This document shows positions 3,744-44,696 of a stretch of 44,696 nt of DNA, in pieces. Where the stretch lies: the IMG/VR virus record IMGVR_UViG_3300037165_000022, positions 1 to 44,696 of that record. One strand, written 5' to 3'. Within the stretch, counting starts at the first letter, position 1; the number at the start of each line of letters is the position of its first letter. The notes under the pieces were generated by a model. The model did no database searches. It worked only from the letters and a program-made list of their open reading frames with translations, and was not told the origin of the DNA. Both the position numbers and the translations under genes were made by a program. The DNA is from a virus.

Positions 3744-3762
3744 TTTATTGGTTTTTGTTACA

Positions 3763-3794: not shown

Positions 3795-3831
3795 TATTTG
3801 TCGAATTATTTTTGAAGTATTTATAACCTAC

Positions 3832-4429: not shown

Positions 4430-4430
4430 A

Positions 4431-9016: not shown

Positions 9017-9133
9017 TTAGTATTCGAAATATTCTTCTGTATCTTCTTCGCGAGCAGTATCATAAAGAACTACTTCATTTATCACTTTAAGTAGTTCTTT
9101 ATCGTCTGCAAATGCAATTTCTAACTTTTCCAT
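9017..9133 (-). CDS. very small acidic protein (38 aa)
   Basis: It encodes 38 residues, MEKLEIAFADDKELLKVI followed by an acidic, aromatic tail (REEDTEEYFEY). The ATG shares one base with the stop of the nucleotidyltransferase gene (TAATG), a junction used repeatedly in this operon. This supports translation by coupling. The stop is 9 bases before the next ATG. Function is unknown; the fully acidic tail could be an interaction or mimic segment. Confidence 0.55.
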   Translation of the reverse strand: MEKLEIAFADDKELLKVINEVVLYDTAREEDTEEYFEY

Positions 9134-11377: not shown

Positions 11378-12111
11378 TATTCTTCATTTGTAGGTTTCAG
11401 CCACAACTTCGTGCGTGTGAATATATAATTTTTCAACCCATCATAATATTCAAGCATTTTAAGTGTGTCTAATGTGTTGTGTTTAAAGCATTTATAAAGC
11501 TCCTCACGGATGCGTTCTTCAGATACAACTTTGAACATTTCATCATAGTTGAAATGAACAATCATATCTGAAATTTCTTGGCTTATTACAAAGTCTTTTG
11601 TAATAGCAAATCGTATAGCTCTTAATAAGCGTAAAGGATCATCTGTGAATGTAATTTCACCAGAAATAGGAGTTCGTAGAATTCCTAGTTCAATATCATT
11701 TCGGCCATCAAAAGGATCATAAATATTTCCTTCTTCATCCTTAGCAATTGCATTTATAGTGAAATCTCGCCTTGTAAGATCATCAAGAAGTGTGCCGGGA
11801 ACTAAAATTGGCTCACGAGTACCTTCCTTATAACCTATTTCCTTACGAGCTATTACAAAATCTGCTGTAAGATTTTCCTTTTTATAACCTCTTGGAAATT
11901 GAGCCCTAATTGTATACATTCGAGGAGTTGTAAGAAATATAGTAAATCCTTTGCGATTCAAATATTCAACTAACAGTGCAAATATTTGCTCCATATCTGT
12001 ATGCTCAGGAATTCTATCCATATTAGGTACAGCCACATAATCAATATCCTTAGACTTCTTGCCTAAGAACTCATCTCGGATTTTGCCTCCAACTTCATAG
12101 AACTTAAACAT
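11377..12111 (-). CDS. CCA-adding enzyme / poly(A) polymerase family nucleotidyltransferase
   Basis: The 244 residues show the class II tRNA nucleotidyltransferase head. VGGKIRDEFLGKKSKDIDYV (7-26) has the GG and the metal-binding D22/D24. LTADFVIARK is the third acidic strand, and RRDFTINAIA (114-123) and DDPLRLLRAIRFA (157-169) form the neck that reads ATP and CTP. Cellular enzymes are about 400 residues, so this version lacks most of the body and tail that measure the tRNA. Such enzymes rebuild the CCA end of tRNAs. Beside an RNA ligase and kinase it suggests repair of tRNAs cut by host defence nucleases. The shortened tail could change specificity. Confidence 0.9.
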   Translation of the reverse strand: MFKFYEVGGKIRDEFLGKKSKDIDYVAVPNMDRIPEHTDMEQIFALLVEYLNRKGFTIFLTTPRMYTIRAQFPRGYKKENLTADFVIARKEIGYKEGTREPILVPGTLLDDLTRRDFTINAIAKDEEGNIYDPFDGRNDIELGILRTPISGEITFTDDPLRLLRAIRFAITKDFVISQEISDMIVHFNYDEMFKVVSEERIREELYKCFKHNTLDTLKMLEYYDGLKNYIFTRTKLWLKPTNEE

Positions 12112-12362
12112 AATCGTAAGTTTTTAAGTGATTCAGAAGATTCCATATAGAAATCATCTATAATACTACCTCCATGTTCTGCATCAGGATCAGCTCGGGT
12201 TCTGATTATGTTCAGACTGTCCAGAGCCTGCCAGAATCTCAGATCTGGATTCTCCATCAGGAATTTCTCCAGTAGGAGTAGTATCTGTTTGTTGTAGCTC
12301 CTCCTGTCTATCGCTGCTTTCCTGTTCACTAGATCTGCTATCTGCTGCACGATGGATTCCAT
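12063..12362 (-). CDS. conserved phage small protein, overprinted on its neighbour
   Basis: The 99 residues include KQILLLLEKFLMENPDLRFWQALDSLNII (26-54) and later DDFYMESSESL. This LxxFLxENPDLRFxQAL...DxFYxES pattern recurs in small proteins of many phages, so the frame looks genuine. Its first 173 bases overlap the 12190-12594 gene in another frame, and its last 49 bases overlap the CCA-type gene. Start ATG 12362 is chosen because the helix before the conserved block is well formed; ATG 12257 would cut into the motif. Function is unknown. Confidence 0.7.
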   Translation of the reverse strand: MESIVQQIADLVNRKAAIDRRSYNKQILLLLEKFLMENPDLRFWQALDSLNIIRTRADPDAEHGGSIIDDFYMESSESLKNLRLCLSSMKLEAKSEMSS

Positions 12363-12594
12363 GTTTCATTATTATTAATGATTTATAACCTGCTTGTAAT
12401 ACTTGCTGCAAAAGTTTCATAAAATTGAATACATCTACATCTCCATGAGGATTTCCTAATGGAGTTTCTGTCTTAATTATCCAATATTTTTCATGCTGTT
12501 TTCCTCTCGCAATTTGTGGAGAACATATCCAATCTAGCAAATCTGTTCGATGTGCTAGATTGGTATCCTCTATGTGTAATGTAAAGATGTTCAT
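12190..12594 (-). CDS. hypothetical protein with overprinted, disordered C-terminus
   Basis: In these 134 residues, 1-84 look like a folded domain (FTLHIEDTNLAHRTDLLDWI ... DVDVFNFMKLLQQVLQAGYKSLIIMKHGIHR). From about 85 the chain becomes Ser-, Glu-, Gln- and Asp-rich and apparently disordered. That change coincides with the 173 bases shared with the 12063-12362 gene, suggesting its tail has been shaped by the other reading frame. The ATG shares one base with the upstream stop (TAATG). No family is recognised. Confidence 0.65.
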   Translation of the reverse strand: MNIFTLHIEDTNLAHRTDLLDWICSPQIARGKQHEKYWIIKTETPLGNPHGDVDVFNFMKLLQQVLQAGYKSLIIMKHGIHRAADSRSSEQESSDRQEELQQTDTTPTGEIPDGESRSEILAGSGQSEHNQNPS

Positions 12595-12797
12595 TACATT
12601 AATTCTTTCATTTGTGATTTGAAATATCCTCTCACTCTCTTAGACCATTTCTTCTTTTCAAATCTGCCAGAAGCTTTTCCTTTAGGAGACATACTTGTTA
12701 TAGATCTAGTAATATGAGTTAAAGAACCTTTACAATTTGCTATCCCATTCATGTTCTCATTATAGGCAGCTTTGTGTCTTCTACCTTTATTTTTCAT
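12594..12797 (-). CDS. small very basic protein
   Basis: The 67 residues contain about twenty Lys/Arg, with KNKGRRHK at the start and FEKKKWSKRVRGYFK near the end, and no acidic cluster except at the last residues. It is likely a nucleic-acid-binding or ribosome-associated peptide. The ATG overlaps the stop of the metallophosphoesterase gene by 4 bases and its stop is coupled to the next ATG, so it is a true member of the operon. I do not recognise the family. Confidence 0.6.
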   Translation of the reverse strand: MKNKGRRHKAAYNENMNGIANCKGSLTHITRSITSMSPKGKASGRFEKKKWSKRVRGYFKSQMKELM

Positions 12798-13402
12798 CGC
12801 ACATTTGTATTTTTCCCGTGGCTATCAGGAAATGTAATATCTCTTTTATCAAGAATATTATACACTTCTTCAAATGTGAAGGGTCGGTACTCTCCAAGCA
12901 GTTTATAGGCATTATCAATGCCTACATCCATACTTTTTCCATAAGGAGTACGTTCCAGACTTCCATGAGAATGTCCATAAGTATGCATGAATCCTTTATG
13001 AGATCCAAGCCATACACGAAAAGCATAGTGCATTGCTACCCAAGGAATTCCATTAATAGTACCTTCCCAGTAGTCCTGTACAGAAGTGAAGAACTCGGTA
13101 TATTTATGTATATGCTGATCATGATTTCCACGAATGAAATGAATATTTTTACATCGAATTTGCATCCGATAATTGGGAATGTTTGTATGCCCTCCAAAGG
13201 CAAAGTCTCCATGAAAAAGAATAGTATCATCTTCTTTAACAATATCATTGATATTAGTAGTGATAGTTTTATTCATTTCATGGAGACTGGAAAAGTCTCT
13301 GTAGCCATTCGTCCATTTAGAACTACTAGGGCCTGCTATATTAGCATGTCCTAAATGCCAATCTGAACTAAGGAAGACATTTCCTGTGAGTTTATTTTCC
13401 AT
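12794..13402 (-). CDS. calcineurin-like metallophosphoesterase
   Basis: The 202 residues carry all five blocks of the fold: SDWHLGH (13-19), GDFAFGG (65-71), RGNHD (91-95), AMHYAF (123-128) and YGHSHG (142-147). Together they hold two metal ions. Small phage members of this type hydrolyse phosphodiesters or phosphomonoesters such as 2',3'-cyclic phosphates, and several operate in RNA end-healing. Sitting directly after a polynucleotide-kinase-like gene and near an RNA ligase, it could prepare RNA 3' ends, but a different substrate cannot be excluded. It starts 11 bases inside the kinase gene end. Confidence 0.92.
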   Translation of the reverse strand: MENKLTGNVFLSSDWHLGHANIAGPSSSKWTNGYRDFSSLHEMNKTITTNINDIVKEDDTILFHGDFAFGGHTNIPNYRMQIRCKNIHFIRGNHDQHIHKYTEFFTSVQDYWEGTINGIPWVAMHYAFRVWLGSHKGFMHTYGHSHGSLERTPYGKSMDVGIDNAYKLLGEYRPFTFEEVYNILDKRDITFPDSHGKNTNVR

Positions 13403-13895
13403 AAGTTTTTGAATAGATTTTGTATGGTGAAATATCTATACGAGGATATGCCTTGTAAAATGCTTTTAGGTGATCCAGCGGAATATATTTACCAGTTTTA
13501 ATTTTCCGAATTATATTTCTTATCCACGCTTTCCAGTAGGGTATTTTGAAGAACTCTACGTAGAATTCCATTTTACCTGAATTTATCAAGCTTTGAAAGG
13601 TGGTAAGATAGGCTGCCATATGCTTATTCTGCATGTGACAATTATCGAGAATAATTACTCCTTCTTCTAATGTAGAAGCTGTACTTAGTTGTTTGTAGAA
13701 TTTCTCAGTAACAACTTTTTCATTAACAACACACATTATATAAGGCTGCGGAAATGATTTCCGAATTACGTCCTTACTAATAATTACTACATTAGTTTTA
13801 TGACGTGCTGCAAGGATGGGAAGATTTTCCTCTATCCAAGTGGACTTTCCACTACAGGGTGCTCCTACTAAACAAATAACAATTAATTTGCTCAT
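13392..13895 (-). CDS. polynucleotide-kinase-like P-loop protein
   Basis: The 167 residues begin with a beta strand and Walker A GAPCSGKST (11-19), followed by a hydrophobic strand VVIISKD (36-42) and the central VIILDNCHMQNK. This DN(C/T)H block and the G.P.SGKST loop are typical of the T4 Pnkp-type 5'-kinase domain, which transfers gamma-phosphate from ATP to a 5'-OH of RNA or DNA. The phosphatase half of T4 Pnkp is absent. The separate phosphoesterases at 12794 and 15874 could supply it. An intergenic hairpin lies 12 bases before its ATG. Confidence 0.82.
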   Translation of the reverse strand: MSKLIVICLVGAPCSGKSTWIEENLPILAARHKTNVVIISKDVIRKSFPQPYIMCVVNEKVVTEKFYKQLSTASTLEEGVIILDNCHMQNKHMAAYLTTFQSLINSGKMEFYVEFFKIPYWKAWIRNIIRKIKTGKYIPLDHLKAFYKAYPRIDISPYKIYSKTYGK

Positions 13896-13906
13896 AATAA
13901 AAATTA

Positions 13907-13927
13907 AGGGGAGTATCTCACTCCCCC
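13907..13927 (-). terminator. stem-loop, probable (weak) minus-strand terminator
   Basis: The 7-bp GC-rich stem GGGGAGT/ACTCCCC (13908-13914 with 13920-13926) and 5-base loop are followed on the minus strand by TTAATTTTTATT. It sits in the only non-coding gap (13896-13930) between the 13931-14203 gene and the kinase gene. No promoter is visible for the kinase, so termination is probably partial. Confidence 0.65.
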
Positions 13928-13930
13928 TGT

Positions 13931-14203
13931 TTATAATTCATCCCATTTATATACCACAAATGTCTCTTTCTTAGAGGCAGATATTTTTCGATTCAGAAAC
14001 AAATAGGGAGTTCCTATTTTATAATAAAGCTTCAAGAATTCTTTAGATTCCTTGTTGCCATCCACTATTTTCAGAAGTTTCTGTCGTAGTATTACCTGAT
14101 CTTCATAAGACAAACTTCCGGGTATCTTAATTACTGCAAATCCTGGCTTGTAAATAATTTTAGCCTGAGTTGCATCGTCCACAGTTACGATTAGAATTTT
14201 CAT
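13931..14203 (-). CDS. hypothetical protein
   Basis: The 90-residue small alpha/beta protein has no cysteines: MKILIVTVDDATQAKII, then IPGSLSYEDQVILRQKLLKI and a C-terminal TFVVYKWDEL. No family is recognised. The ATG is 3 bases after the RNA ligase stop and the stop is followed by a hairpin, so it ends the upstream transcript. Its association with the ligase suggests a supporting role in the same process, without direct evidence. Confidence 0.7.
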   Translation of the reverse strand: MKILIVTVDDATQAKIIYKPGFAVIKIPGSLSYEDQVILRQKLLKIVDGNKESKEFLKLYYKIGTPYLFLNRKISASKKETFVVYKWDEL

Positions 14204-14206
14204 GTA

Positions 14207-15544
14207 TTATCCTCCTTGTGATTCTTGAGTTTCAATATCCACTGTACCGCTGTCCAGTTCTCGTGTTTCCCTTTCTTTAAATCGGAAGGATTTTAGCTTA
14301 TAAGCCTCATATTCCAATCCTTCTATTCGTAATACAAATCCTTCAGCAGGTACTTTAGCTTTACACATATCACAATCCTTTTCCATATTGAAGCTGGTAA
14401 GTAATTTAGTTAATAACTCTCCATACCATTCTTCTTCACTTGCAGTTCCAACTGGAAGCCAATCACCTGCTTTAACATAATAAAATTCAGGAACTGCTTT
14501 AAGCATATTAGCTTTGCACCAATCCTGTACCTGCTTTGCACTGAATTCGAATACTTTACCCCCAAAGGTAGTGAATGTAATACGATAGATGTAGATGCCA
14601 TAGCAGGTATTAAACTGCCCTTTAGGATCATATCCATAGTCATATCCTCCCTGAATAGGACGTCCGCTTCTTGTAAATCCTACTACTTCTCCATAAATAG
14701 TCATACCATCCAGAAGATAAGGAGCAAGTTCCTTAGAAACATCAGCCCAGATGTCTTCGCCATAGAAATGATTGTAATTACGACCAAGATCATCATTCTT
14801 AATCACTTTACGGCTACTCCAGATATTATCGTAATGAGTATCATTGATTGGCACACCAAGAGTTTTGAGAAGTCTTGGAAACCATCCTATCTTCTTCTTA
14901 CATAATATCTTAGAGGTAATGAAAGATGAACCGTGTAGCTTATTTGTGATAGAAATAAAGCTGTCTGGCTTAACTTTGAAGATATTCTTGCCAAGAGCTT
15001 TTGTATCCTCATGAAAGCGGAACTGTCCGTCTATAATTCGTGATACTTTCTTAGCAATCTTTTGATTACCATTTTTACTGCCGGGTGTTCCCGGAGTATA
15101 TGTAATTTTCGGGATATATTTCTCGCAGATTTTAACACCATTAATCTCGTCAAATGTGGAACCTTCAGGGAGAGCAGCAACATCAACTGCTTCAGCTGCA
15201 AAGAGTATGCTTGTAGCTGGTAGAAACATTCCCTCGGATTTGTGTCCCCGAAACTTAACACAACGAATTCTTCCATTATCTTCGAAATATCCCTTTTCGT
15301 TAATATTGCAGTTTTTGGTGTTGTCACGGTAAAGGTTATTAGTATACAAGAACTCATCAGAGAGTCTTGTTTCAATCGGGAAGAAGATTCCTCTATCTCC
15401 CACTTTCGTATCTTTGCCTACTACTACTAGGTTTCCAAAGATAAGTGTATGCACTACATTATCACATTTCTCAAGAGGTATTAAGTTCTTGATAGTCACA
15501 ATAGTAGCTGCATAATTCTCGTTAATTGGAGTTTTCAGTTTCAT
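14207..15544 (-). CDS. RNA ligase, DRB0094/Rnl5-like
   Basis: The 445 residues have two parts. The N-terminal region (about 1-145) resembles the OB-like module found before the catalytic domain in DRB0094-type ligases (VGKDTKVGDRGIFFPIETRLS, FRGHKSEGMFLP). The nucleotidyltransferase domain has motif I TNKLHGSSF with lysine K202 as the adenylated residue, motif III-like MTIYGEVVGF, motif IV AEGFVLRIEG and motif V YKLKSFRF. These enzymes seal 3'-OH/5'-phosphate RNA breaks using ATP. Two Cys pairs around residue 390-395 (KDCDMCKAKV) are an oddity, perhaps a metal site. It lies in an operon with kinase, phosphatases, RlaP and CCA-type enzymes. Confidence 0.92.
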   Translation of the reverse strand: MKLKTPINENYAATIVTIKNLIPLEKCDNVVHTLIFGNLVVVGKDTKVGDRGIFFPIETRLSDEFLYTNNLYRDNTKNCNINEKGYFEDNGRIRCVKFRGHKSEGMFLPATSILFAAEAVDVAALPEGSTFDEINGVKICEKYIPKITYTPGTPGSKNGNQKIAKKVSRIIDGQFRFHEDTKALGKNIFKVKPDSFISITNKLHGSSFITSKILCKKKIGWFPRLLKTLGVPINDTHYDNIWSSRKVIKNDDLGRNYNHFYGEDIWADVSKELAPYLLDGMTIYGEVVGFTRSGRPIQGGYDYGYDPKGQFNTCYGIYIYRITFTTFGGKVFEFSAKQVQDWCKANMLKAVPEFYYVKAGDWLPVGTASEEEWYGELLTKLLTSFNMEKDCDMCKAKVPAEGFVLRIEGLEYEAYKLKSFRFKERETRELDSGTVDIETQESQGG

Positions 15545-20300: not shown

Positions 20301-21815
20301 CTAAAATAAATGTGTTACATTCTCGAAAGTGAATGTAAAGTCCTTATCTCCAGTGAGTTCCTTCTTACTCTCTAAATCTCCTTTTTTCTTATCGTTCAGG
20401 AAATACTCTTTCCTGTTGGCGATATAGGCTTTTAGATAGTTAGAGAGAAATATGGCCTCTTTGGTTTTGAAATGTGTGGCATAATAGTCCATAATAGTAT
20501 CCAGACTGATAGGATCACTAGTGGATAATATCTGTATTGGATATTTCTCTGCATACTTTAGAATAGCATTACAGATGAATAGCCAATTTATCATTTTCTG
20601 TCCATTAGTTGTGGCAGAATGGAGCCGAAACTCCATTGTCTTCCTTTTACTGAAGAACATATTCATGAAATTAAGCCAATAGTAACGTCCAGCTCTCTCC
20701 CATTTAGCTGTTCTGCTATGATTATGATTACGCCGGTTAAACTGATCATCTGGCTCATTTCCATCATTGAGGAATTTATACATACGATAATAAGCATCAT
20801 TTACATAATTTTCATATTCCTCTTTGTTAGAATCAGTTTTTAGTAAACCAACACCTAGTTTTCTTACCTTCTGGCAATAATCCTTCTTTTTGAAGTTTTT
20901 CCATTCCGTCTTATATCCGGGGAACATGGTAAAAATCTCCTCCTGAATTCGTATAGCCAGAGCCCATAGAGCGATTAAGAATAGTCGATTATCTGGGAGT
21001 GTACCAAAGTGAATATGAAATGAACATTTAATATCTATTAGAGTCCGCTTACTCAGCTCCTCTGCTAGATATTTTAGGTTTACTAAACCCCTTGGGCCAT
21101 GCATTGGTACAGTAACAAACTCTGCATTATCTATTGAACCATCCCGACATATAACAACACCTGTTCGGTTTTGAATATGTTCTGGAAGATAGCCCATAGA
21201 AGTCTCGGTTTCACAGCCGAAACTTGTATTTCCCAGAAGCTTTCCATATCGCATAGCACTAGAGCTTATCTTAACAGGATATTTATCGAAGGCATCAATC
21301 TTCTGCTTGAACTCTTCTGCGTTATCTTCGATATTATATCCCTTGTCTTGATAAACCTTCTTGCTTGTAATTCTGTTAAGCTGAGAAATTTGAGATGCCG
21401 ATAGCTCTCTTTTAAGGAGCCATAAACCATCAGACAGATTTTCAATATATCCTCCCTTCACGAGAACATCTTCACTAAGACTCTTTACGGAGCCATAATT
21501 ATTAATATTTACAAGAACGTTAAAATATTTATTTTCTGTAAAATAGCCGAAGTCAGGCACTCCATCCTTCTTAAATCCTACAACACCATATATAAGAGGA
21601 GTATTTTTTACGATAACATGTATACCCTTCTCGTGATCAAAAGTGATAAGTTTTGATGTGTAAGCATACCATTTTCCTTCAATAAGGAAACATTGCTCAT
21701 TTTCCACATAATACTTATCCTTCATCTTACGACAATTCTTACGATATTCAGTCTCTCCTGTAATGGTTTTTATAGTTTTAAGCTTCAACTTAGGATTGTC
21801 ATTGTAACGTATCAT
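20301..21815 (-). CDS. amidoligase (GCS-fold COOH-NH2 ligase, Amidoligase_2-like)
   Basis: In these 504 residues, the N-terminal 180 form a beta-rich unknown part (GKWYAYTSKLITFDHEKGIH and so on). The C-terminal part carries the amidoligase signature of the glutamate-cysteine-ligase/glutamine-synthetase fold: TSFGCETETS (197-206, metal-binding Glu pair), CRDGSIDNAEFVTVP (223-237), CSFHIHFG (264-271) and later KRKTMEFRLHSATTN. These enzymes use ATP to join a carboxylate and an amine, making peptide-like amide bonds. The gene overlaps the amidotransferase by 4 bases and is the 3'-terminal gene of an island with ATP-grasp, a second ligase and a GGCT. The substrate is unknown. Confidence 0.88.
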   Translation of the reverse strand: MIRYNDNPKLKLKTIKTITGETEYRKNCRKMKDKYYVENEQCFLIEGKWYAYTSKLITFDHEKGIHVIVKNTPLIYGVVGFKKDGVPDFGYFTENKYFNVLVNINNYGSVKSLSEDVLVKGGYIENLSDGLWLLKRELSASQISQLNRITSKKVYQDKGYNIEDNAEEFKQKIDAFDKYPVKISSSAMRYGKLLGNTSFGCETETSMGYLPEHIQNRTGVVICRDGSIDNAEFVTVPMHGPRGLVNLKYLAEELSKRTLIDIKCSFHIHFGTLPDNRLFLIALWALAIRIQEEIFTMFPGYKTEWKNFKKKDYCQKVRKLGVGLLKTDSNKEEYENYVNDAYYRMYKFLNDGNEPDDQFNRRNHNHSRTAKWERAGRYYWLNFMNMFFSKRKTMEFRLHSATTNGQKMINWLFICNAILKYAEKYPIQILSTSDPISLDTIMDYYATHFKTKEAIFLSNYLKAYIANRKEYFLNDKKKGDLESKKELTGDKDFTFTFENVTHLF

Positions 21816-24316
21816 ACATTTACGCGTTTACCTACTACTTCTTTTACATAGTATTGGAGTTCCTCCTCCTTATGTTTAATAGTTAATTCGTGTAAGTCTC
21901 TTAATGCAGGATCTACGATCCGATATATAAGATTAGCTGCTCCTTGAGCAAAGTCGTTGTCTTCATAAGCTTGCAGTTCGTCTGCACAATCACGACAATC
22001 GCTAAGTCTATCTACGATGTCCTGAAAAGCATAATCTCTTTCAGTATTAGGATCATCAAGGATGTCTCTTTCTGCATCATCATCAACATAAAAAGGGCCT
22101 TCAGGATCTTCATCCGTGGGAACAGCAGCCTGTTCTCTTGCTACCATCATATCAATAACGGGAGTTTCACCTTCATCCATTCCATCCTGAGAATTAGTTC
22201 CAAATTTCTCCTTCAGATAAATATCACCTTCAGCAGGTGGTACAAGTCCTAGGTTCTTGGATACTACTCTCAAGTGAGCTGCGTTGATTTCTTGGGTGGT
22301 TTTACTTGCTGCCTCATTCATTTGAACGATGCGTGCCTCGACATCAACTACATCTTCCTTTGGTTTGGGAATGAATTCACATACTTCTATATTACCGGAG
22401 ACTTCTTCATCATAGATACTACCATTAGGATTATCGTTAGCTATTACAAGATAGTCAACAACTTCCTTGTAGTTTTTCTCATCCCAATTATCCATAATAG
22501 TTGCCCCATTCTCTATACATATCTGTAGCATCATATTGAGTTGAACATCTACCTGATCGTCATAAATATTCTCAGGATATATACCCATTTCATTCATCAT
22601 AACGTCTACAATATAATAGCGAATTGCATCCATCTCAAGTTTAGTGAGTTCATCACGAACTTGTGTAATACTATCCCAATGCTGATAAAAATGGGTGACA
22701 TCCCATTCTTTTTCCTGTTTAGGAGTTTCAGATTTTTCTATTGGAAAAGGAAGTTCATCCTGTTTCGTAGTAGTTGCCAAACCTTTGAGCAAATTTGTTA
22801 AGCCTATTGCTGGACTTTGAACATCCTTAGATACTTCCTCAGCACGAGAATTACGCAGAGATTCTATATCTATACACGTCTCAGGAGCACCATGTCCTTT
22901 CTGAGAAGCAATAGCATGTAGTAAACCATCCTTAATAAGATAGTTTCTATCACTGAATTTAGGCGTAAAACTTGTATTTCCACACATATTTCCGTTCTGA
23001 AACCAGCGATATTTGTAATAATCTGCACAATTCTTACACATAGATTCAATATCTGCCTTAGAATTACAGATTGGATAATCCGCATACTTAGAAAGATATG
23101 TTACACGATTCCAGAAGATATTCTTCAGATCTCCATCAGCTAATGCTACTTTATAAGCAGCCTGACTCTTCATTAAAACACCTTCAAAGAAGAACCAGTT
23201 ATGATGTTGTGCATCTTTGTGTATTCCCACTACACCTTTTTTATTGATATAATAGGAACCATGTGCAAGCACTATCTCACCAGCATTACTATCTACTATC
23301 CAATACCGTCCAAGATGGAAGAAAACACCTTTCTTCTTATCATATCTATCAACTCGTTTTGGCATTGTTTCATGCCATATGATAGAAGAAGTAGTTTTCT
23401 CAAACTTAGAATTATAAGTAGACCCTATATGAGAATTAGTCCCACCTATCGTAGGGGGAATAACCGCTGGTGTATGCAAATTGCTCTGCGTCGAAGAAGA
23501 AGCCAGCGTCCCTATTGGCTTTGGGTAGTTTGCTGTCGGACTCCATCCATAAGTATTTAAACTTACTCCAATATTAACAACATCTCTACTAATGCGTACT
23601 TTAGATTTGGTCATTACACCATTTGTAATCTTATGTACGATATTACCTTCAAGTTGTTTAACTTTATCGCCACTGCTATCAGAAATAGCTAGTAGAGATT
23701 TCTGAAGACTAGAAAAGTATATTCCTTCTTCAGATTGAAGATAGAATAACGGTCTTTCCTCTTCTTCAGGGCTATTCGTAACGCGTTGAGATACACCACG
23801 ATATGCATAAATGGCATTTGGTTCATCTTGTTTAGTCATTAACAAAGCAGCAAAACCTTCATATTCATTAAGAATACCAAAACCTTCCTGATTAATAAGC
23901 TCTGCAAGTCCTAAACTATCCACATGGATTCCTGTATGGTTGATTTTGTACTTATTGCATAATGTCCAAATGTTACGAATAACACCATTATGAGCAAGAA
24001 CAAAATTATCATTCACACGAAATGGATGTGCATTTTCTATTGTATGAGAGCCATGAGTAGCTGCTCGGGTATGTCCGATCATTATAAAATTTCCAGTATC
24101 CATTGGATCAGGAAATTCTCTTGCTGCAATAAAATCGTCAAATAGTTTCTCTTTATCGACGCCTTTGATCAGATGATTATCTATAAATACTCCGCAGGAG
24201 TGCTTTCCCCGCTCGATATTATATAATCCAAGAATCTTAAACTTGGCAATAGCAGCCTTTGTCATCGCTCGATCCATCACTTTAGGGTTTAACGAAGCAC
24301 CGAAGATTCCGCACAT
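21812..24316 (-). CDS. class II glutamine amidotransferase-like protein with long C-terminal extension
   Basis: This 834-residue protein starts MCGIFG, so Cys2 becomes the N-terminal nucleophile after Met removal. GHTRAATHGS (81-90), NAHPF (95-99), LAHNGVI (107-113) and D133 complete a class II (Ntn) glutaminase site like GlmS, PurF and AsnB. The domain ends near residue 240. The next 590 residues match no sugar isomerase, PRTase or synthetase domain that I recognise; they contain CKNCADYYKYRW (about 430), a long acidic stretch and a helical end. The glutaminase would release ammonia or transfer the amide N to an acceptor, here probably for the neighbouring ATP-dependent ligases. Confidence 0.88.
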   Translation of the reverse strand: MCGIFGASLNPKVMDRAMTKAAIAKFKILGLYNIERGKHSCGVFIDNHLIKGVDKEKLFDDFIAAREFPDPMDTGNFIMIGHTRAATHGSHTIENAHPFRVNDNFVLAHNGVIRNIWTLCNKYKINHTGIHVDSLGLAELINQEGFGILNEYEGFAALLMTKQDEPNAIYAYRGVSQRVTNSPEEEERPLFYLQSEEGIYFSSLQKSLLAISDSSGDKVKQLEGNIVHKITNGVMTKSKVRISRDVVNIGVSLNTYGWSPTANYPKPIGTLASSSTQSNLHTPAVIPPTIGGTNSHIGSTYNSKFEKTTSSIIWHETMPKRVDRYDKKKGVFFHLGRYWIVDSNAGEIVLAHGSYYINKKGVVGIHKDAQHHNWFFFEGVLMKSQAAYKVALADGDLKNIFWNRVTYLSKYADYPICNSKADIESMCKNCADYYKYRWFQNGNMCGNTSFTPKFSDRNYLIKDGLLHAIASQKGHGAPETCIDIESLRNSRAEEVSKDVQSPAIGLTNLLKGLATTTKQDELPFPIEKSETPKQEKEWDVTHFYQHWDSITQVRDELTKLEMDAIRYYIVDVMMNEMGIYPENIYDDQVDVQLNMMLQICIENGATIMDNWDEKNYKEVVDYLVIANDNPNGSIYDEEVSGNIEVCEFIPKPKEDVVDVEARIVQMNEAASKTTQEINAAHLRVVSKNLGLVPPAEGDIYLKEKFGTNSQDGMDEGETPVIDMMVAREQAAVPTDEDPEGPFYVDDDAERDILDDPNTERDYAFQDIVDRLSDCRDCADELQAYEDNDFAQGAANLIYRIVDPALRDLHELTIKHKEEELQYYVKEVVGKRVNV

Positions 24317-24337
24317 AATTGTATGGTATTTAATGAG

Positions 24338-25279
24338 TTATACTGTTTCTGTCTTTCCTGGATTAGGTAAGTCCAATAACTGAAATTGCTTCCAAGCAAA
24401 GCTTTGAGCATTTTCAAATTTGGTAAAATCCCAATGATCCCTACGTTTATCGGAGGCATTCAGCCAATCAAAATACTTTGCATATTGATCACTGATAAAG
24501 TCAGAGCTGTTTAAAGTTGGACTTGTATTCACTTCGAGAACAAATCCTTCCTTACCTAAGAGTAGTACATCTACTCCTGCAAAATCGAGTCCCAGAGTTT
24601 TTACAGCTTTGAGGGCCTGAAAACATATGGAGAAGATATAATCCTTCTGAGCTATGCGCGTGAAGGCTTCTCCCGTAACCGCACGATTCCAAGCGATGTT
24701 GTCAGATCCTCTTGCTTTCTCCATAACCCCAAGAACCTTCCCGTGAGCGCAATGAACACGAAATTCTCTTTCTTTGTTAATGAACTCGGAATAATACCAT
24801 CCGTTTTTCTCGTTGGCATTATAGTGCTTGGTAAAATCATCCACATTCTTGAGTGTGACGAAGTTTTTACCTTTTGCATGAGTGGATGGTCTTGCTATGA
24901 TAGGAAATTGTGTAGATTTAACATCTGTAGGTGTCACTAACTGAGGAGTCCTTACCTTGTTCTTGATGAAGAGCTGCCGGGATAGTTTCTTATTGGTAGC
25001 ATTTGCAATGCCTTCAGACTTGTTATAGATAATAGAACTCTTATCTGTGTCTGCCTCAATTCGATTACCCCACCGGATATATTTGCCACCTGCCAAGTTA
25101 AGTTCATTGATTGGTTTTTTAACAAATTTATCAACTGTTGCACCTTCATAAACACGCAAATATGCATGTTTAGTCTTAGGAGGAATTCTCCTAACTGTGA
25201 GAACGCTCTTAGTTTTCATGAGCGCAAACACCTTTTTCATTGATGGTCTACCATCTCTTCCAACGAGTATACTGATCAT
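24338..25279 (-). CDS. ATP-grasp ligase, RimK-like
   Basis: The 313 residues from ATG 25279 overlap the upstream stop as ATGA. The ATP-grasp order is visible: ATNKKLSRQLF, PIIARPSTHAKGKNF (the first nucleotide-binding loop, with Arg where many have Lys), YSEFINKEREFRVHCAHGKV (about 163-182), GVMEKAR, GLDFAGVDVLL (D237) and FVLEVNTSPTLNSS (EVN 249-251), which bind Mg-ATP. Such enzymes activate a carboxylate as acyl phosphate and attach an amine, for example RimK adding Glu to protein tails. It sits between the amidotransferase and a GCS-type ligase, implying a multi-step conjugation. Confidence 0.9.
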   Translation of the reverse strand: MISILVGRDGRPSMKKVFALMKTKSVLTVRRIPPKTKHAYLRVYEGATVDKFVKKPINELNLAGGKYIRWGNRIEADTDKSSIIYNKSEGIANATNKKLSRQLFIKNKVRTPQLVTPTDVKSTQFPIIARPSTHAKGKNFVTLKNVDDFTKHYNANEKNGWYYSEFINKEREFRVHCAHGKVLGVMEKARGSDNIAWNRAVTGEAFTRIAQKDYIFSICFQALKAVKTLGLDFAGVDVLLLGKEGFVLEVNTSPTLNSSDFISDQYAKYFDWLNASDKRRDHWDFTKFENAQSFAWKQFQLLDLPNPGKTETV

Positions 25280-26133
25280 GCCGCGAGTTTTACACCAAAG
25301 TAAGAACACATAGTATTAGCCAAAGCCATATTATTTGTATTGATAGCGGCTTGTACAGCTGTACCTTCTTCTTCACTTATTTGGTGATTATTATTAACAA
25401 ATTCAATTGCTGCGAGTGTATTATTATATACCCAGTCTACAAGTGTAGTACTGTTTACATAATAATTCGATATAGTGCGATATTCTGCACCATATTCCTT
25501 GAATCGGAATGCTCCTGCTTTTCCATAGAGTGTTTTCCGCTCATTATCAGGTTCCTGAATAATAGATGGAAGCCCTATGAAAATATCCATTGCTCTAATA
25601 AGAGCCATAGATATATTTGCATTAGGTTTATCATAACCTACATGAATATGGCCACCACAACTCCTTAGATCAGAAATTGCTTCAGGCTTAGGATTCATAT
25701 CTCCCAGAAGCCATGCATTGAAATCAGGATCACATCCAAAAAGCTTTGCACTCTCTGTTTGAAGAAACCGATTATCAAGCCGGGCTGATGGTTGAGCTAA
25801 TACCTTTAAACTATTAGGAATGAAACCTTCAATCCATCCAAGAGCAAATGCAATGTTTTCTCTGAACTGCTTCACTTCTTTTGCAGGAGGAATACAGAAC
25901 TCAGCCATTACATTATCCAAAGAAGTAGCAAAGAATGGTTCGCTATCCAGAATTTTATAAGGATTATCTTTAGTTCCCATTATAATTCCTTCAGCACTCA
26001 CCACTGCTTCAGATGCTCTATCCTGAAGAAACACTTCAATATCAGCTCCTATTGTAGGATTATTTATGAGTGGGAGCTTTGGCTTTCCTTGCGATACTCC
26101 TAATCGCTTTTGTTGCTGTTTTTTTGGTGCCAC
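25276..26133 (-). CDS. phage COOH-NH2 ligase (second amidoligase, PF14395-like)
   Basis: In these 285 residues, after a basic N-terminal 25 the motifs of the phage-type COOH-NH2 ligases appear: TIGADIEVFLQ (27-37), GTKDNPYKI (53-61), LDNVMAEFCIPPA (72-84), RSCGGHIHVGYD (157-168) and FKEYGAEYRTISNYYV (about 213-228). The paired acids and GGHIHVG correspond to the metal site of the GCS fold. It would form an amide bond at ATP cost, on a substrate different from the 20301 enzyme, whose motifs differ. Its start overlaps the unknown 26060-27172 gene by 74 bases; no other in-frame ATG precedes the conserved region. Confidence 0.87.
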   Translation of the reverse strand: MAPKKQQQKRLGVSQGKPKLPLINNPTIGADIEVFLQDRASEAVVSAEGIIMGTKDNPYKILDSEPFFATSLDNVMAEFCIPPAKEVKQFRENIAFALGWIEGFIPNSLKVLAQPSARLDNRFLQTESAKLFGCDPDFNAWLLGDMNPKPEAISDLRSCGGHIHVGYDKPNANISMALIRAMDIFIGLPSIIQEPDNERKTLYGKAGAFRFKEYGAEYRTISNYYVNSTTLVDWVYNNTLAAIEFVNNNHQISEEEGTAVQAAINTNNMALANTMCSYFGVKLAA

Positions 26134-27172
26134 TTTCTTTATTTTTGGTTTTTGAAGGGTAATACAGGCGGTCCAGATAGGCTATAAGTCCTTTAATATC
26201 TCTTGCTTTGAAAAGTTCGAAACATTTATACGACTCATGCTTTGTAGTAAAAACAAGACTCTTTCCATTTTTGTCAAGAAGCTGAGGATGATTATTGTTT
26301 CTTGCAGACAGCATATTATTCATAGAACCATCTAGAGGAAGACATGTAAACCATGTTTTCTTGAACTTAGCTGCACTTACTCCAATATCAGGATGCAGAT
26401 TCTCGGTGCGATCGTCAGGATAGTCAGGATAGTCAGAATAGGCTAGACCATATCCACTATACCATGGAGACATTGCAATGCAATACATGAATGCTCTGAA
26501 CGGTTCAAGTCCATAGTCATCTATCAAAGAGAATATTAGTCTTGGGATATTATAATATTCAAGCTTTTCTGTTGAAGCTGCAAGATCATGGTTTTGAGTT
26601 CTAGTGGAATTAATGAGATAGCGCAGATATATCCAGTGCAGATATGGAACATTTCTATTTGTTCCTATTGGCCACCTAGGAACACACACCCAGAAATAGT
26701 TATTTTCCTTCCTACTATATCTGTCCTCATTTACTCCAAAACTAGATATGCTAGGCTTCTTTCCAGTCCATGTTTTAAATGTATCATCTGAAGCAGGTTG
26801 CTCTCCAAAGTAAAGATATCCAAATCCTATTTTCAGATCATTGAGATATTTTATCCATCTTACTAAATCATCCTCCACAAGTCCTACTGCTGCTAATTCA
26901 AGGCGAGATATAGGAAATAAATACCATCTCTCGGGATTCTTTGTAAATGAGCAACATCCTGCTCCTGTAGTAATTGTAATATTACCTGTAATACGACTAT
27001 CCTTCCATGGATCACCATAGGTTGTTACTATATCAGGAGTAGTGAATGCAGCAATTCCTTCCTTTTTCAGTCTCTTAATAACTGTTTCTTTGGTAAGTGT
27101 ACTGAGAAAGTTAACAGATTGGTGACTAAGAATCTGCACTTTCGTGTCATTCTTAAAAATCTTTGGAAACAT
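26060..27172 (-). CDS. unknown protein of the amidoligase island
   Basis: The 370 residues form an apparently globular alpha/beta protein: DIVTTYGDPWKDSRITGNIT, GAGCCSFTKNPERWYLFPIS (near 71-90), WIYLRYLINSTRTQNHDLAAS and a Tyr/Asp-rich loop LAYSDYPDYPDDR. The tail is Lys/Arg-rich (SIARKAKAPTHK). The Gly-Ala-Gly-Cys-Cys-Ser segment could hold a nucleophile, but no family is recognised. It is flanked by a GGCT gene (12 bases upstream) and a COOH-NH2 ligase (74-base overlap), so it is very likely part of the same pathway. Confidence 0.78.
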   Translation of the reverse strand: MFPKIFKNDTKVQILSHQSVNFLSTLTKETVIKRLKKEGIAAFTTPDIVTTYGDPWKDSRITGNITITTGAGCCSFTKNPERWYLFPISRLELAAVGLVEDDLVRWIKYLNDLKIGFGYLYFGEQPASDDTFKTWTGKKPSISSFGVNEDRYSRKENNYFWVCVPRWPIGTNRNVPYLHWIYLRYLINSTRTQNHDLAASTEKLEYYNIPRLIFSLIDDYGLEPFRAFMYCIAMSPWYSGYGLAYSDYPDYPDDRTENLHPDIGVSAAKFKKTWFTCLPLDGSMNNMLSARNNNHPQLLDKNGKSLVFTTKHESYKCFELFKARDIKGLIAYLDRLYYPSKTKNKESGTKKTATKAIRSIARKAKAPTHK

Positions 27173-27183
27173 TTCCTTTAGTT

Positions 27184-27588
27184 TTAATCAATAATTTTAT
27201 TAATATATTTGGCCCAGTCTCCAGACTCTACCTGCTTGTTTTTCAGGTAGCTATCATTGAGGATATACATGTTTGTCTTTCCCCATTGAGTGTCGATAAC
27301 AGTTTTTTGATAGAAGCTTGGATAGCCTTCCAACCAATCAAGGCGTTGCTCTACATCTTTAGAGTTAACGCGAAACACTTCGATTGTTATAGATTGCTTT
27401 CCATTTAATATAACTCCCGGAAAACCTCCAAGGCTCACCATATGAAATTTAGGAGCTGTAATTTCTGTACCGAGATAAGTACAATGTTCGTTATTCAGTA
27501 AGCGGTTATTACCGAAGCCGACCCTCAAGGTCCCGTAAACCGCATACAAAACACCATTTTTAGGGTCTTGCGATTGATTCTTTTCCAT
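27184..27588 (-). CDS. gamma-glutamylcyclotransferase-fold protein (AIG2-like) 1
   Basis: The 134 residues have AVYGTLRVGFGNNRLL (16-31), FHMVSLGGFPGVI (48-60), ITIEVFRV (67-74, E70 the likely acid/base) and QRLDWLEGYP (81-90). These are the standard blocks of the GGCT/AIG2 barrel. Such enzymes cleave gamma-glutamyl amides with formation of pyroglutamate, or related gamma-glutamylamines. In the amidoligase island it could trim or mature a glutamyl-containing product. It starts 29 bases inside the end of the HNH gene and is probably the first gene of the island. Confidence 0.87.
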   Translation of the reverse strand: MEKNQSQDPKNGVLYAVYGTLRVGFGNNRLLNNEHCTYLGTEITAPKFHMVSLGGFPGVILNGKQSITIEVFRVNSKDVEQRLDWLEGYPSFYQKTVIDTQWGKTNMYILNDSYLKNKQVESGDWAKYINKIID

Positions 27589-34226: not shown

Positions 34227-34706
34227 TTATGCAAAAGCTCTTCTTATATTACTGGCATTAGAATAGAGAGTCCTACATTTATTAAGGACATTATCGAGCT
34301 TGAAAGCTACTGCTCCCTTAATCATGAAGTTCAAATACTCCTTGCAGGGAAAAACTTTCTTGTTCTCCTGTTGTGTATACTCGGGATTGAAAGATACATA
34401 AACATACATATCTTTTCCTCTATATTGCTCAACTATTCGTGTATAGAAACGAGGAGCGCCTTCATACTGATCAAGTTGTTTGAGTTGTTTAGAGCTTACA
34501 CTATAAATTACTCCATCAACATAATCATTGGCGGTAAACTGAGGAGTCATCTGTAAGTTAGCAAAGCACAAATGTCCTTGCCCGGCGTTAAATACTAGAC
34601 GCCAACCATATAGTTTATGTTTACTCACTACTTCTACTTTACCTATCCTATCCTGTAATCTGTTAATATCCAGATTACTGCCGTAAGCGAAATATAATTT
34701 TTTCAC
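34227..34706 (-). CDS. gamma-glutamylcyclotransferase-fold protein (AIG2-like) 2
   Basis: The 159 residues have LYFAYGSNLDINRLQDRIG (4-22), GWRLVFNAGQGHLCFANLQ, DYVDGVIYSV (61-70) and LKQLDQYEGAPRFYTR (75-90). These are the GGCT blocks, with YGSN instead of YGTL, so it belongs to the longer GGCT branch rather than that of the 27184 protein. The start is GTG 34706; no ATG fits before the conserved YFAYGS. It sits in the replication module, about 6.6 kb from the amidoligase island. It may act on the same metabolite or on host gamma-glutamyl compounds such as glutathione. Confidence 0.85.
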   Translation of the reverse strand: MKKLYFAYGSNLDINRLQDRIGKVEVVSKHKLYGWRLVFNAGQGHLCFANLQMTPQFTANDYVDGVIYSVSSKQLKQLDQYEGAPRFYTRIVEQYRGKDMYVYVSFNPEYTQQENKKVFPCKEYLNFMIKGAVAFKLDNVLNKCRTLYSNASNIRRAFA

Positions 34707-34717: not shown

Positions 34718-35836
34718 TTAAAATAATAATGATTTATTTTGCTGCTTGAGACGTTCATCTGCAAGCCAATTGTAGAACTTTTGTAGTTCTTCCTTTTGTT
34801 TTTCAGAATGTGGCAATTCTCTAAAGAATTCAGAAGCTCCGTCAAAATATAATGGAACTGATACATTATCAAATCCATCATTATTCTTTAGGATTTCAAT
34901 TTCTCTAAAGTTATTACCTATGAGCTTTATATCATAGCCCTTGTAATTCTCTATTTTAAATTTATGAGGAGCAAATAGTGATAATACTAAATGATAGCTT
35001 CTCACTACTTCCTTGGTTCCTCCTAAATTAGCCAGAGAAGGTTTTATCTTCTCCAGAATAGATCCTCCCGCATTTGTAAACTGTTGACGTTCGGCTTCTA
35101 ATGCTTGCTGGTGAATAATCACCCAACTCATCTTGAACACTTTGGAATAAAGAAGTCTGCAATCACGTTGAACAAAGCTATCCATAGCTTCTTTCTTATC
35201 GTGATGATGTTTCTCTTTATCCATATTATTCAAATTATCACAGACTGCAAGCCAGTGGGTATTATCCTTTGGTTTGAAGCCTACGATTTGAGTCTTGGCA
35301 GCATCATAGTCAGCAGGCTTGGTGATGATTTCACCCAATTCACCTGCTGTCTTTAACACATCCTTATATATTGCATAGGGATATGTTAAATGATCCTTAA
35401 TTCTCACCTTATTACTAAAGTCTTGCAAGTATTTCTCACCCTCCTTAATCCTTTTCAGAACTTCAGAAGATAGTGTTCTAAACTTAGAATCCAGATCAAA
35501 AGTAGAAACTTTCAACTTATGCTTCATTCCTAGATAGTGGCATAAGATGTTTTTATACACCTTCATTGCACTATCCTCAAGAGCATAATAGTCTATAAGT
35601 ATGGGATAATCATTAATAATAGAGAATTCATAAGGATGCATAATATAAGTATACCGCATGAACTTGGACTTTGCTGCACCAGTATATGATGTAATGCCTG
35701 TAACAGTTTCTCTATCAATACTCGGCACGAACTCTGCGAGTCGTGGATATGGATAGGGAATACCATTAAAGCTACCATTTTGCTTGATTTCAGCTTTCTG
35801 TTCTATATTTTTGATTGTCTCAGAAAATAAGTTCAT
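34718..35836 (-). CDS. DnaB-like replicative helicase (RecA-fold ATPase)
   Basis: In these 372 residues, the nucleotide loop reads GITSYTGAAKSKF (47-59), a Walker A where the Gly before Lys is Ala. HWLAVCDNLNNM (about 197-208) is the Walker B strand with Asp, and MSWVIIHQQALEAERQ is the motif 3 strand with Gln. KPSLANLGGTKEVVRSYHLVLSLF resembles the DnaB L2/motif 4 segment (the GGS..i...D.vl.l pattern). There is no DnaB N-domain. It should form the hexameric fork helicase with the primase. It is coupled by TAATG to the 35836 gene, which may load it. Confidence 0.75.
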   Translation of the reverse strand: MNLFSETIKNIEQKAEIKQNGSFNGIPYPYPRLAEFVPSIDRETVTGITSYTGAAKSKFMRYTYIMHPYEFSIINDYPILIDYYALEDSAMKVYKNILCHYLGMKHKLKVSTFDLDSKFRTLSSEVLKRIKEGEKYLQDFSNKVRIKDHLTYPYAIYKDVLKTAGELGEIITKPADYDAAKTQIVGFKPKDNTHWLAVCDNLNNMDKEKHHHDKKEAMDSFVQRDCRLLYSKVFKMSWVIIHQQALEAERQQFTNAGGSILEKIKPSLANLGGTKEVVRSYHLVLSLFAPHKFKIENYKGYDIKLIGNNFREIEILKNNDGFDNVSVPLYFDGASEFFRELPHSEKQKEELQKFYNWLADERLKQQNKSLLF

Positions 35837-42988: not shown

Positions 42989-43022
42989 CAAAATTAATGA
43001 ATAAAGAAAATAATCTCTCAAG
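42989..43022 (-). promoter_or_regulatory. probable promoter after the nadV terminator
   Basis: The -7 box TAATTTTG (42989-42996) has a CTTG about 22 bases upstream (43019-43022), inside the loop of the nadV terminator. Spacing and sequence are near consensus. It would start the transcript 42967 to about 39854. Confidence 0.5.
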
Positions 43023-43043
43023 GTTCACTAGAGAGATTATTTT
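43007..43043. terminator. terminator after nadV
   Basis: A perfect 13-bp inverted repeat AAAATAATCTCTC (43007-43019) and its complement (43031-43043) have an 11-base loop. On the minus strand the stem is followed by TTTCTTTATTC. It begins 3 bases after the nadV stop and separates the NAD-salvage transcript from the next operon. Confidence 0.85.
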
Positions 43044-43045
43044 TG

Positions 43046-44647
43046 TTACAAATAAGCATTCAGTCGATTCCTGATTTCCTGAAGGCTAGTATATGACAGC
43101 AATTTTCCATCTAGGAAAATAGGCTGCAATAAACCTTGTTCTTCTTCCTCAGCTGAACACCGGTCTTTCAAATATAAATTATTACGCTTATCTTCTAGTA
43201 CGCAGAGCAGACCCCGAGCAGACTTCTTTGTGCCATCATCAGTCTTTGGATCTTTGAAGATCTCACGCCCTACGACTAGATTTGTTTCGCTTTCTTCATC
43301 CTCTTGAATCAACTCACCATAAGTTGCCTTCATTGCAAATCCAAATGTGTCCCGAGTTTGATACTCATATGTGAAGGAACCGATTCCTAACACTACATTT
43401 GTAGATGCGAAGTTCTTACGCTTGAGTCCTTTCAAGATTTGAATCTGGCGTTCCAAGGTAATAGAATCACCATATATAAGACCAATTTTTGGTGACAATT
43501 GCTTATATCCAGCAGGACTAAGAGAGCCTCCGAATATATCCCATAGGCATTGAATAGCTCCTCTTACTTCCCAGATTTCAAGAGGTTTTGAAGGCCCTTG
43601 TCCTTCATTATCTGCAAAGAATTCATCCTTGAGATACAATTTACCGTTGTGTTCGGTAATTTCCTCCGGCATATAGCCACAGATAATCCTATAAGGATCA
43701 CCGCTGTCTGGACGAATAACCACCTTATCAATACCAATAGGACTACCAGTACGGAGGGTTATTTCATTCTTGAGCTGAGGCAGGAAATCATTAATTACCT
43801 GCCAGAAATCCCATGTATCACTTACTACGGATACTATTCCGCTTGGATAGATATCGCATATAAGGCGGCGGAATGTTTCAAATTCGCCATCCTTAGAGCC
43901 CATACACATTACACTATGCTCCGTGGCAGGTACAGAACCCCCTACGATTTCCTTATCACTATCTGCAAAATAGTAATCTTCAAGGAAATCAATAGCAGCA
44001 CATGTATCAGTACCCCAGAAGGATAGTAGATGAGCAGCACCTGATAGGCAGGCATCTTCATCTCCAGACATGCCGCGATAAGAGAAATCATGTCCTTGCC
44101 ACATTACAAAACCATTCTGATCAACTGCTCCCACAGTCTCATTATAATACTGGTTAAATACCTTCTTATACTGATGAGCAAGTGTAGCAGAAGTACAAGC
44201 TTTCCATATCTTATTAGATAGGACAGACTCTAGATAGTTAACTAGCCAGAATTCTTCCTGTCTTGTATTTGTGATGGTGAAAACAGGTACGCCCATAGGA
44301 ACTATACTTCCTTCAGGTAGAGCTTTGATCTTTAGCGGTAAATATCCGAGCTTATGCAATGCGCGGATGTGATCTGTATTAATAGCACCTTTACCTAGTG
44401 CGTTATCCATACGGCGTTGGTATTTGCCGATTACTTCTTCTATAGGCTTATTAAAGAAGCGGCGATTCCATTCCTCAATCAGGAAGGCCAGAATGACATA
44501 TTGCATACCAAAGAATACAATACTATCTATTCCTTTGATGCGGCTCTTTCGAGGCGTAAAATTAGAATATACTTTTGTTGTTCCTTCAGGATACTGTTTG
44601 ATATGTCCAGTCTTGTACATATCGATTTTGTGCAATGGATTATTCAT
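43046..44647 (-). CDS. nadV: nicotinamide phosphoribosyltransferase (NAMPT)
   Basis: The 533 residues are a full-length NAMPT (human 491). It joins nicotinamide with PRPP to give NMN, the first step of NAD+ salvage. Visible are the N-terminal DMYKTGHIKQYPEGTTKVYSN, FWLVNYLESVLSN, FSYRGMSGDEDACLSGAAHL, GGSVPATEHSVMCMGS (catalytic His), VSVVSDTWDFWQV, VVIRPDSGDP (Arg and Asp of the phosphate/PRPP site) and LKRKNFASTNVVLGIGS. Phage NAMPT-NMNAT pairs rebuild NAD+ from the products of NAD-cleaving defence systems. Its ATG overlaps a stop from upstream (ATGA), so its partner may be just outside the window. Confidence 0.95.
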   Translation of the reverse strand: MNNPLHKIDMYKTGHIKQYPEGTTKVYSNFTPRKSRIKGIDSIVFFGMQYVILAFLIEEWNRRFFNKPIEEVIGKYQRRMDNALGKGAINTDHIRALHKLGYLPLKIKALPEGSIVPMGVPVFTITNTRQEEFWLVNYLESVLSNKIWKACTSATLAHQYKKVFNQYYNETVGAVDQNGFVMWQGHDFSYRGMSGDEDACLSGAAHLLSFWGTDTCAAIDFLEDYYFADSDKEIVGGSVPATEHSVMCMGSKDGEFETFRRLICDIYPSGIVSVVSDTWDFWQVINDFLPQLKNEITLRTGSPIGIDKVVIRPDSGDPYRIICGYMPEEITEHNGKLYLKDEFFADNEGQGPSKPLEIWEVRGAIQCLWDIFGGSLSPAGYKQLSPKIGLIYGDSITLERQIQILKGLKRKNFASTNVVLGIGSFTYEYQTRDTFGFAMKATYGELIQEDEESETNLVVGREIFKDPKTDDGTKKSARGLLCVLEDKRNNLYLKDRCSAEEEEQGLLQPIFLDGKLLSYTSLQEIRNRLNAYL

Positions 44648-44696
44648 TGTTTTAGTATAACGCAGTTATTAGCGAATTGAGATGTATAGTATTGGG
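44644..44696 (-). CDS. end of a gene upstream of nadV (partial)
   Basis: Only 17 codons are inside the window: QYYTSQFANNCVILKQ and TGA. The TGA overlaps the nadV ATG as ATGA, the coupling pattern used throughout this region. This frame is therefore preferred over the other one that stops nearby. Too little is visible to name it; by analogy with other phages an NMN adenylyltransferase is a reasonable guess only. Confidence 0.45.
   Translation of the reverse strand, partial: QYYTSQFANNCVILKQ

What the first reader, a model, noticed from the sequence alone, without database searches (positions are those of the whole stretch)
43046..44696. Phage NAD+ salvage gene (NAMPT) with a coupled upstream partner cut by the window edge
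Seen: full-length NAMPT with catalytic residues, followed by a strong terminator, and an ATGA-coupled frame entering from the window end. Known: phage NAD+-reconstitution pathways pair NAMPT with NMN adenylyltransferase and defeat NADase defences such as Thoeris- or DSR-type systems. Inference: this is such a pathway, so the next gene should be an NMNAT.
Basis: partly seen in the sequence, partly recalled or inferred. Interest (0 to 1): 0.7.

Follow-up and report, generated by a model that had tools for sequence, protein, structure and literature searches.

The report
Phage NAD+ rebuilding enzyme, Namat type
This phage carries an enzyme that very probably rebuilds the vital cofactor NAD+ directly from its two breakdown products, undoing a bacterial suicide defence; it is a new member of a known counter-defence pathway (NARP1), and its missing partner is predicted to be Adps rather than the NMN adenylyltransferase that was proposed.

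Summary
The enzyme is real: a complete 533-aa NAMPT-fold protein at 43046-44647 (-), with a strong terminator behind it. The claimed "ATGA-coupled frame" is not supported: all three frames in the 49 nt before the start codon score like non-coding frames. The specific inference (classical NAMPT, so NMNAT next) is probably wrong. The protein carries the clamp that distinguishes Namat from Nampt (motif GSFTYEYQTRD plus the clamp Arg), is 51% identical to SPbetaL1 Namat, and groups with Adps-linked enzymes (100% split from the NMNAT-linked NadV group). All 41 dereplicated viral relatives with enough flank have an Adps-like gene nearby on the same strand; NMNAT-fold genes occur in 5 of 50 records, none near the enzyme. 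Two relatives collinear with the window (L002, and L093 of 123 kb, which has no NMNAT) have Adps, a HAD-like phosphatase and a nucleoside-deoxyribosyltransferase-like gene (NDT2) upstream of Namat. So this is most likely the end of a NARP1 operon: ADPR becomes ADPR-PP, then NAD+. Adps lies beyond the window and is unseen. The recurrent NDT2, HAD and NADAR neighbours (NDT2 within 1.5 kb of Namat 8 times; 0.8 expected) suggest ADP-ribose-supplying accessories; that is the only possibly new element.

The parts
43046..44647 (-). NAMPT-family enzyme, assigned to the Namat (nicotinamide ADP-ribose transferase) type, 533 aa
43349..43381 (-). Selectivity-clamp helix motif GSFTYEYQTRD (residues 423-433), equivalent to SPbetaL1 Namat 390-400; aromatic clamp positions Phe and Tyr kept
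   Evidence: motif defined in PMC12774641
43916..43918 (-). Catalytic histidine, His244 in ATEHS
44540..44542 (-). Clamp arginine Arg36, aligned with SPbetaL1 Namat Arg40
43003..43043 (-). Intrinsic terminator closing the transcript after the enzyme gene
   Evidence: -16.2 kcal/mol, z -5.1, followed by U-rich tail
44648..44696 (-). All that is visible upstream: 49 nt with no supported coding frame; predicted to be the 3' end of, or spacer after, the preceding operon gene (NDT2 in both collinear relatives), with Adps further upstream beyond the window
   Evidence: prediction from relatives, not seen

Best explanation
The gene encodes a Namat-type enzyme, the last gene of a NARP1 operon whose other genes lie beyond the window edge. 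When a host defence NADase (TIR, SIR2 or SEFIR effector) splits NAD+ into nicotinamide and ADP-ribose, the partner Adps converts ADP-ribose plus ATP into ADP-ribose pyrophosphate, and this enzyme joins that to nicotinamide, giving NAD+ in one step without NMN or an NMN adenylyltransferase. Shown here: the fold family, the Namat clamp and catalytic residues, the placement among Adps-linked enzymes, the terminator, and the presence of Adps upstream in two collinear relatives. Inferred: that Adps is present in this phage, the substrate, and the counter-defence role.
For: Every ligand-contact residue tabulated for SPbetaL1 Namat is kept except Ala362, which is Ser here as in most relatives; the clamp residues Arg40, Phe392, Tyr396, Thr398, Arg399 and Asp400 are all kept, whereas four NadV-type phage enzymes read GGGLLQ-type there. 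51% identity to SPbetaL1 Namat against 27-31% to the NadV type. The best PDB match by sequence, 9w5x, carries the motif GSFTYQYNTRD. 100% bootstrap split, branch 0.90, between the group with the window enzyme and the NadV group. An Adps/PRPP-synthetase homologue is on the same strand in 41 of 41 dereplicated loci with enough flank, 22 of them directly upstream. Collinear relatives L002 (70% identical enzyme) and L093 (66%; DNA polymerase 76%, helicase 72%, more than ten genes in the same order) both have Adps upstream of Namat. No NMNAT-fold gene in the window or in the 123-kb record. PHROG 12872 is matched by Adps at its N-terminal part and by this enzyme at its C-terminal part, suggesting a natural fusion.
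Against: Adps is not in the window, so the pathway is not seen in this genome. The published consensus has mainly Gln/Asn at the sixth motif position; this enzyme and its two closest relatives have Glu. Namat also makes NMN from PRPP in vitro, so a Nampt-like role alongside host NMNAT cannot be excluded. The relatives were gathered with this enzyme as query, so they are biased towards its own branch. Nothing biochemical was or could be tested.
Confidence: 0.85

Rival explanations
1. One reading: a PRPP-using NAMPT that makes NMN, coupled to a phage NMNAT encoded just upstream.
For: Same fold family; NMNAT-NAMPT pairs exist in phages (L075, L076). Namat retains PRPP activity in vitro (PMC12774641).
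Against: Namat clamp present and grouping away from the NMNAT-linked branch; no NMNAT near the enzyme in any of 50 records; collinear relatives have NDT2, HAD and Adps upstream; no coding signal in the supposed coupled frame.
Confidence: 0.06
2. A stand-alone nicotinamide salvage enzyme that makes NMN from host PRPP and leaves the last step to host NMNAT, boosting NAD+ for phage replication rather than countering a defence.
For: Adps is not visible in the window; some phage NAMPT-like genes (L074, L077) have no annotated partner next to them.
Against: All 41 dereplicated relatives with enough flank carry Adps, and so do the two collinear ones; the adenine clamp would be unnecessary for PRPP.
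Confidence: 0.07
3. Extended NARP1: besides Adps and Namat, the operon in this lineage contains an NDT2-like N-glycosidase and a HAD phosphatase that turn ADP-ribose-based immune signals, ADP-ribosylated molecules or ADP-ribose phosphates into plain ADP-ribose, feeding Adps, as RyDEP does in phage DyoEdafos. This extends the best explanation rather than opposing it.
For: Adps-HAD-NDT2-Namat in L093 and the same genes in L002; Adps-NDT2-NADAR-Namat in L015 and L067, Namat-NADAR-NDT2 in L030; NDT2 within 1.5 kb of Namat 8 of 17 times, expected 0.76, P 5e-8; NADAR 4 of 13, P 4e-4; the 8 strong hits of this HAD subfamily in 50 records all lie by Adps/Namat; NDT2 keeps the family Glu and folds like 4mcj; the RyDEP precedent (PMC13232231).
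Against: The window shows neither gene; NDT2 also occurs in phages away from Namat; no substrate is known; both could serve nucleotide salvage; the P values treat records as independent; the HAD model was built from loci near Namat.
Confidence: 0.3

Closest known systems
NARP1 Namat of Bacillus phage SPbetaL1 (PMC12774641; locus L072)
   Same: 51% identity, same catalytic core, same clamp Arg/Phe/Tyr and 11-residue GS-aromatic...TRD motif; belongs to Adps-linked enzymes
   Different: 42 residues longer; Glu at the sixth motif position; Adps partner lies outside the window; in the lineage two further genes (HAD, NDT2) sit between Adps and Namat
NadV-type phage NAMPT with NadM/NMNAT (NARP2-like; L075 Ps15, L076 RBC63)
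   Same: NAMPT fold and nicotinamide-binding core
   Different: 27-31% identity, GGGLLQ-type clamp region, NMNAT-Nudix partner directly upstream instead of Adps
RyDEP-containing NARP1 operon of mycobacteriophage DyoEdafos (PMC13232231)
   Same: NARP1 operon with an extra ADPR-releasing enzyme inserted
   Different: The accessory gene there is RyR-domain; here, in relatives, NDT2, NADAR and HAD
Human and Xanthomonas NAMPT (PDB 2h3d, 2g95 and others)
   Same: Fold and catalytic chemistry
   Different: Uses PRPP, lacks the adenine clamp (PMC12774641); phmmer scores about 205 bits against 491 for 9w5x

Membership tests
Namat (NARP1 ligase) | NAMPT fold and conserved NAM/ribose-phosphate site (Asp13, Tyr15, Phe189, Arg192, Asp215, Arg306, Asp308, catalytic His) | tested here: met
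   all identical
[quoted passage not shown]
   GSFTYEYQTRD; sixth position Glu instead of the usual Gln/Asn
Namat (NARP1 ligase) | Clamp loop arginine (SPbetaL1 Arg40) | tested here: met
   Arg36
Namat (NARP1 ligase) | Groups with known Namat apart from NMNAT-linked phage NAMPT | tested here: met
   split support 100, branch 0.90
NARP1 system | Adps gene in the same operon | tested here: inconclusive
   Absent from the visible window, which ends 49 nt upstream of the gene; present in both collinear relatives
NARP1 system | ADPR-PP plus nicotinamide gives NAD+; protection from NADase defences | not testable with these tools
   Needs enzyme assay and phage challenge
NARP2 (Nampt plus NMNAT) | NMNAT (HxGH cytidylyltransferase fold) encoded with the enzyme | tested here: not met
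   None in the window, in L093's 123-kb record, or near Namat in 50 relatives; the part of this genome beyond the window is unseen
NARP2 (Nampt plus NMNAT) | PRPP-type entrance without the adenine clamp | tested here: not met
   Clamp residues present

The most novel reading that the evidence does not exclude
In this phage lineage NARP1 is a four-gene pathway (Adps, HAD phosphatase, NDT2-type N-glycosidase, Namat): the two extra enzymes release plain ADP-ribose from host immune signals, ADP-ribosylated molecules or ADP-ribose phosphates and feed it to NAD+ synthesis, as RyDEP does elsewhere.
Probability: 0.3. Interest if true: 0.65.

Novelty: new member of a known kind. Interest (0 to 1): 0.37.

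Why it matters
It corrects a plausible misreading: phage 'NAMPT' genes of this branch should be read as Namat, with Adps rather than NMNAT as partner, and the clamp motif points to this from sequence alone. It also raises a testable question: whether the NDT2, HAD and NADAR genes that recur beside Adps-Namat supply ADP-ribose to NAD+ rebuilding, which would join signal destruction and cofactor repair in one operon.

Tried and rejected
Reading past the edge: the record ends at 44696, and an exact 26-base pattern from the edge found no other contig. Identifying the upstream gene from its 16 visible residues: no better than chance against Adps, NDT2, HAD and other tails, by pairwise scores or an Adps profile. 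An apparent NMNAT in L071 (as annotated) was used as an NMNAT seed, but its sequence looks like a Nudix protein and it found only itself; the NMNAT test was redone with PF01467. L024 looked like a 100%-supported sister in a rerooted tree; checked on the unrooted tree the support is 50, and its record has no relative of the window's polymerase, so it is not used. Searches with the window's whole DNA polymerase found nothing new; a conserved fragment found L091 and L093. A genome-contig scan found no relative. Three genome-search runs failed on a handle limit. No PADLOC hit. The founding NARP paper (Osterman et al., Nature 2024, from memory) was not found in the library, so what it says of accessory genes was not checked.

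Full report
What was checked. The window is a complete IMG/VR record of 44,696 bases, so the edge at 44696 is the end of the available sequence. On the minus strand, 43046-44647 encodes 533 residues from an ATG with Pfam NAPRTase and NAMPT_N domains and PHROG 448, nicotinamide phosphoribosyl transferase. Directly behind it lies a 13-bp hairpin with a U-rich tail, -16.2 kcal/mol, z -5.1, so the transcript very probably ends here and any operon partners are upstream, off the window. The 'ATGA-coupled frame' fails: all three frames that enter from the edge are short, and all score like wrong frames under the window's own codon usage. The test is weak, because only 8 to 16 codons are visible, but it gives no support for coupling. 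The window's genes mostly lack a Shine-Dalgarno motif (3 of 29), so absence of one here is uninformative.

What the enzyme is. Phage NAMPT-fold enzymes come in two functional types: Nampt, which makes NMN from PRPP and needs an NMNAT, and Namat, which joins nicotinamide to ADP-ribose pyrophosphate made by Adps, a PRPP-synthetase relative (PMC12774641). [quoted passage not shown] The window enzyme reads GSFTYEYQTRD and has the arginine; of the ligand-contact residues tabulated for SPbetaL1 Namat only Ala362 differs (Ser, as in most relatives). NadV-type enzymes of phages R11Z, Ps15, RBC63 and AYL read GGGLLQ or similar there. Identity is 51% to SPbetaL1 Namat and 27-31% to the NadV type; the best PDB match by sequence, 9w5x, carries the motif GSFTYQYNTRD. 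A maximum-likelihood tree of 75 proteins separates the NadV group from the rest, window enzyme included, with 100% bootstrap support and a branch of 0.90 substitutions per site.

What its partner should be. Of 64 viral loci retrieved with the enzyme and holding enough of it, 52 remain after removing near-duplicates and 41 of these have at least 4 kb on both sides: all 41 have an Adps/PRPP-synthetase homologue on the same strand within the flank, 22 of them directly upstream. A cytidylyltransferase-fold (NMNAT) gene occurs somewhere in 5 of 50 whole records, never near Namat, and not in the window. By contrast the NadV-type L075 and L076 have an NMNAT-Nudix gene directly upstream. A search with a conserved part of the window's DNA polymerase found a 123,280-base record, L093, collinear with the window over more than ten genes (polymerase 76%, helicase 72%, homologue of 34718-35836 78%); its order is Adps (2150-3061), HAD-like phosphatase (3073-3528), NDT2 (3503-4024), Namat (4033-5646; 66% identical to the window enzyme). 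L002 (24 kb; Namat 70%, polymerase 74%) has Adps, two genes of unknown function, HAD, NDT2, Namat. Neither L093's record nor L091's has an NMNAT. The prediction for the missing sequence is therefore NDT2, then HAD, then Adps. Adps of L093 is 34% identical to SPbetaL1 Adps over 199 residues.

How it most likely works. Defence NADases split NAD+ into nicotinamide and ADP-ribose. Adps turns ADP-ribose into ADPR-PP with ATP; Namat joins ADPR-PP and nicotinamide to NAD+. These chemical steps are published for SPbetaL1 (PMC12774641) and are inferred here from residues and gene context; the pathway in this phage is not shown because Adps is off the window.

The accessory genes. In the same 50 records NDT2 (PF15891) lies within 1.5 kb of Namat 8 of 17 times against 0.76 expected for random placement, all eight on the same strand and on either side of Namat. 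NADAR (PF08719) does so 4 of 13 times against 0.38; Iyer et al. already noted NADAR next to phage NAD+ salvage genes (PMC9503650). A HAD-like subfamily with a DxDxT motif and, in most members, DDRAGL gives 8 strong hits, all beside Adps and Namat, though its model was built from such loci. NDT2 keeps the family's glutamate and folds like putative nucleoside deoxyribosyltransferase 4mcj. RyDEP, inserted in a NARP1 operon, converts cyclic ADP-ribose signals into ADP-ribose that Adps-Namat rebuilds into NAD+ (PMC13232231). By analogy NDT2, NADAR and HAD may release ADP-ribose for the same pathway. This is inference: NDT2 also occurs in phages away from Namat, the records are not fully independent, and no substrate is known.

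Verdict. The possibly new part, accessory ADP-ribose-releasing genes in the operon, is seen only in relatives.

Noticed in passing
window 20301-27588 and 34227-34706 (-): A run of Amidoligase_2 (20301-21815), class-II glutamine amidotransferase (21812-24316), RimK-like ATP-grasp (24338-25309), phiEco32-type COOH-NH2 ligase (25276-26133) and gamma-glutamyl cyclotransferase (27184-27588), plus a second GGACT gene: looks like a peptide or amide tagging cluster.
   Followed up: partly
window 9133-15544 (-): RNA-repair-like set: RlaP nucleotidyltransferase (9133-10344), PolyA_pol/CCA-type head domain (11377-12111), metallophosphatase (12794-13402), a kinase-like P-loop protein (13392-13895, by eye) and an RNA-ligase-like protein with a weak, below-cut-off OB-fold match (14207-15544).
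   Followed up: partly
window, all genes: Only 3 of 29 genes have a Shine-Dalgarno-like motif in the 20 nt before the start, leaders are A/T rich and GC is 35.6%; fits a phage of Bacteroidota (host is inference).
   Followed up: partly
L004, L006, L008, L010, L012, L016, L019, L059: Their Namat-like enzymes carry a 7-residue insertion inside the clamp helix (GSFTYQGA...DAI(I/V)TRD), a possible variant of the adenine clamp.
   Followed up: no
PHROG 12872: A 547-position phage family matched by Adps in its N-terminal part and by Namat in its C-terminal part: probably an Adps-Namat fusion protein.
   Followed up: no
L015:4182-7509, L067:4206-7650, L030:5211-8411: NARP1 operons that also contain NADAR and NDT2 genes, in different orders.
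   Followed up: partly
L075:1-1591: The NAMPT-NMNAT locus of Stenotrophomonas phage Ps15 has a gene annotated as a poly(ADP-ribose) polymerase catalytic domain protein about 4.4 kb upstream, and a LOG-family gene downstream.
   Followed up: no
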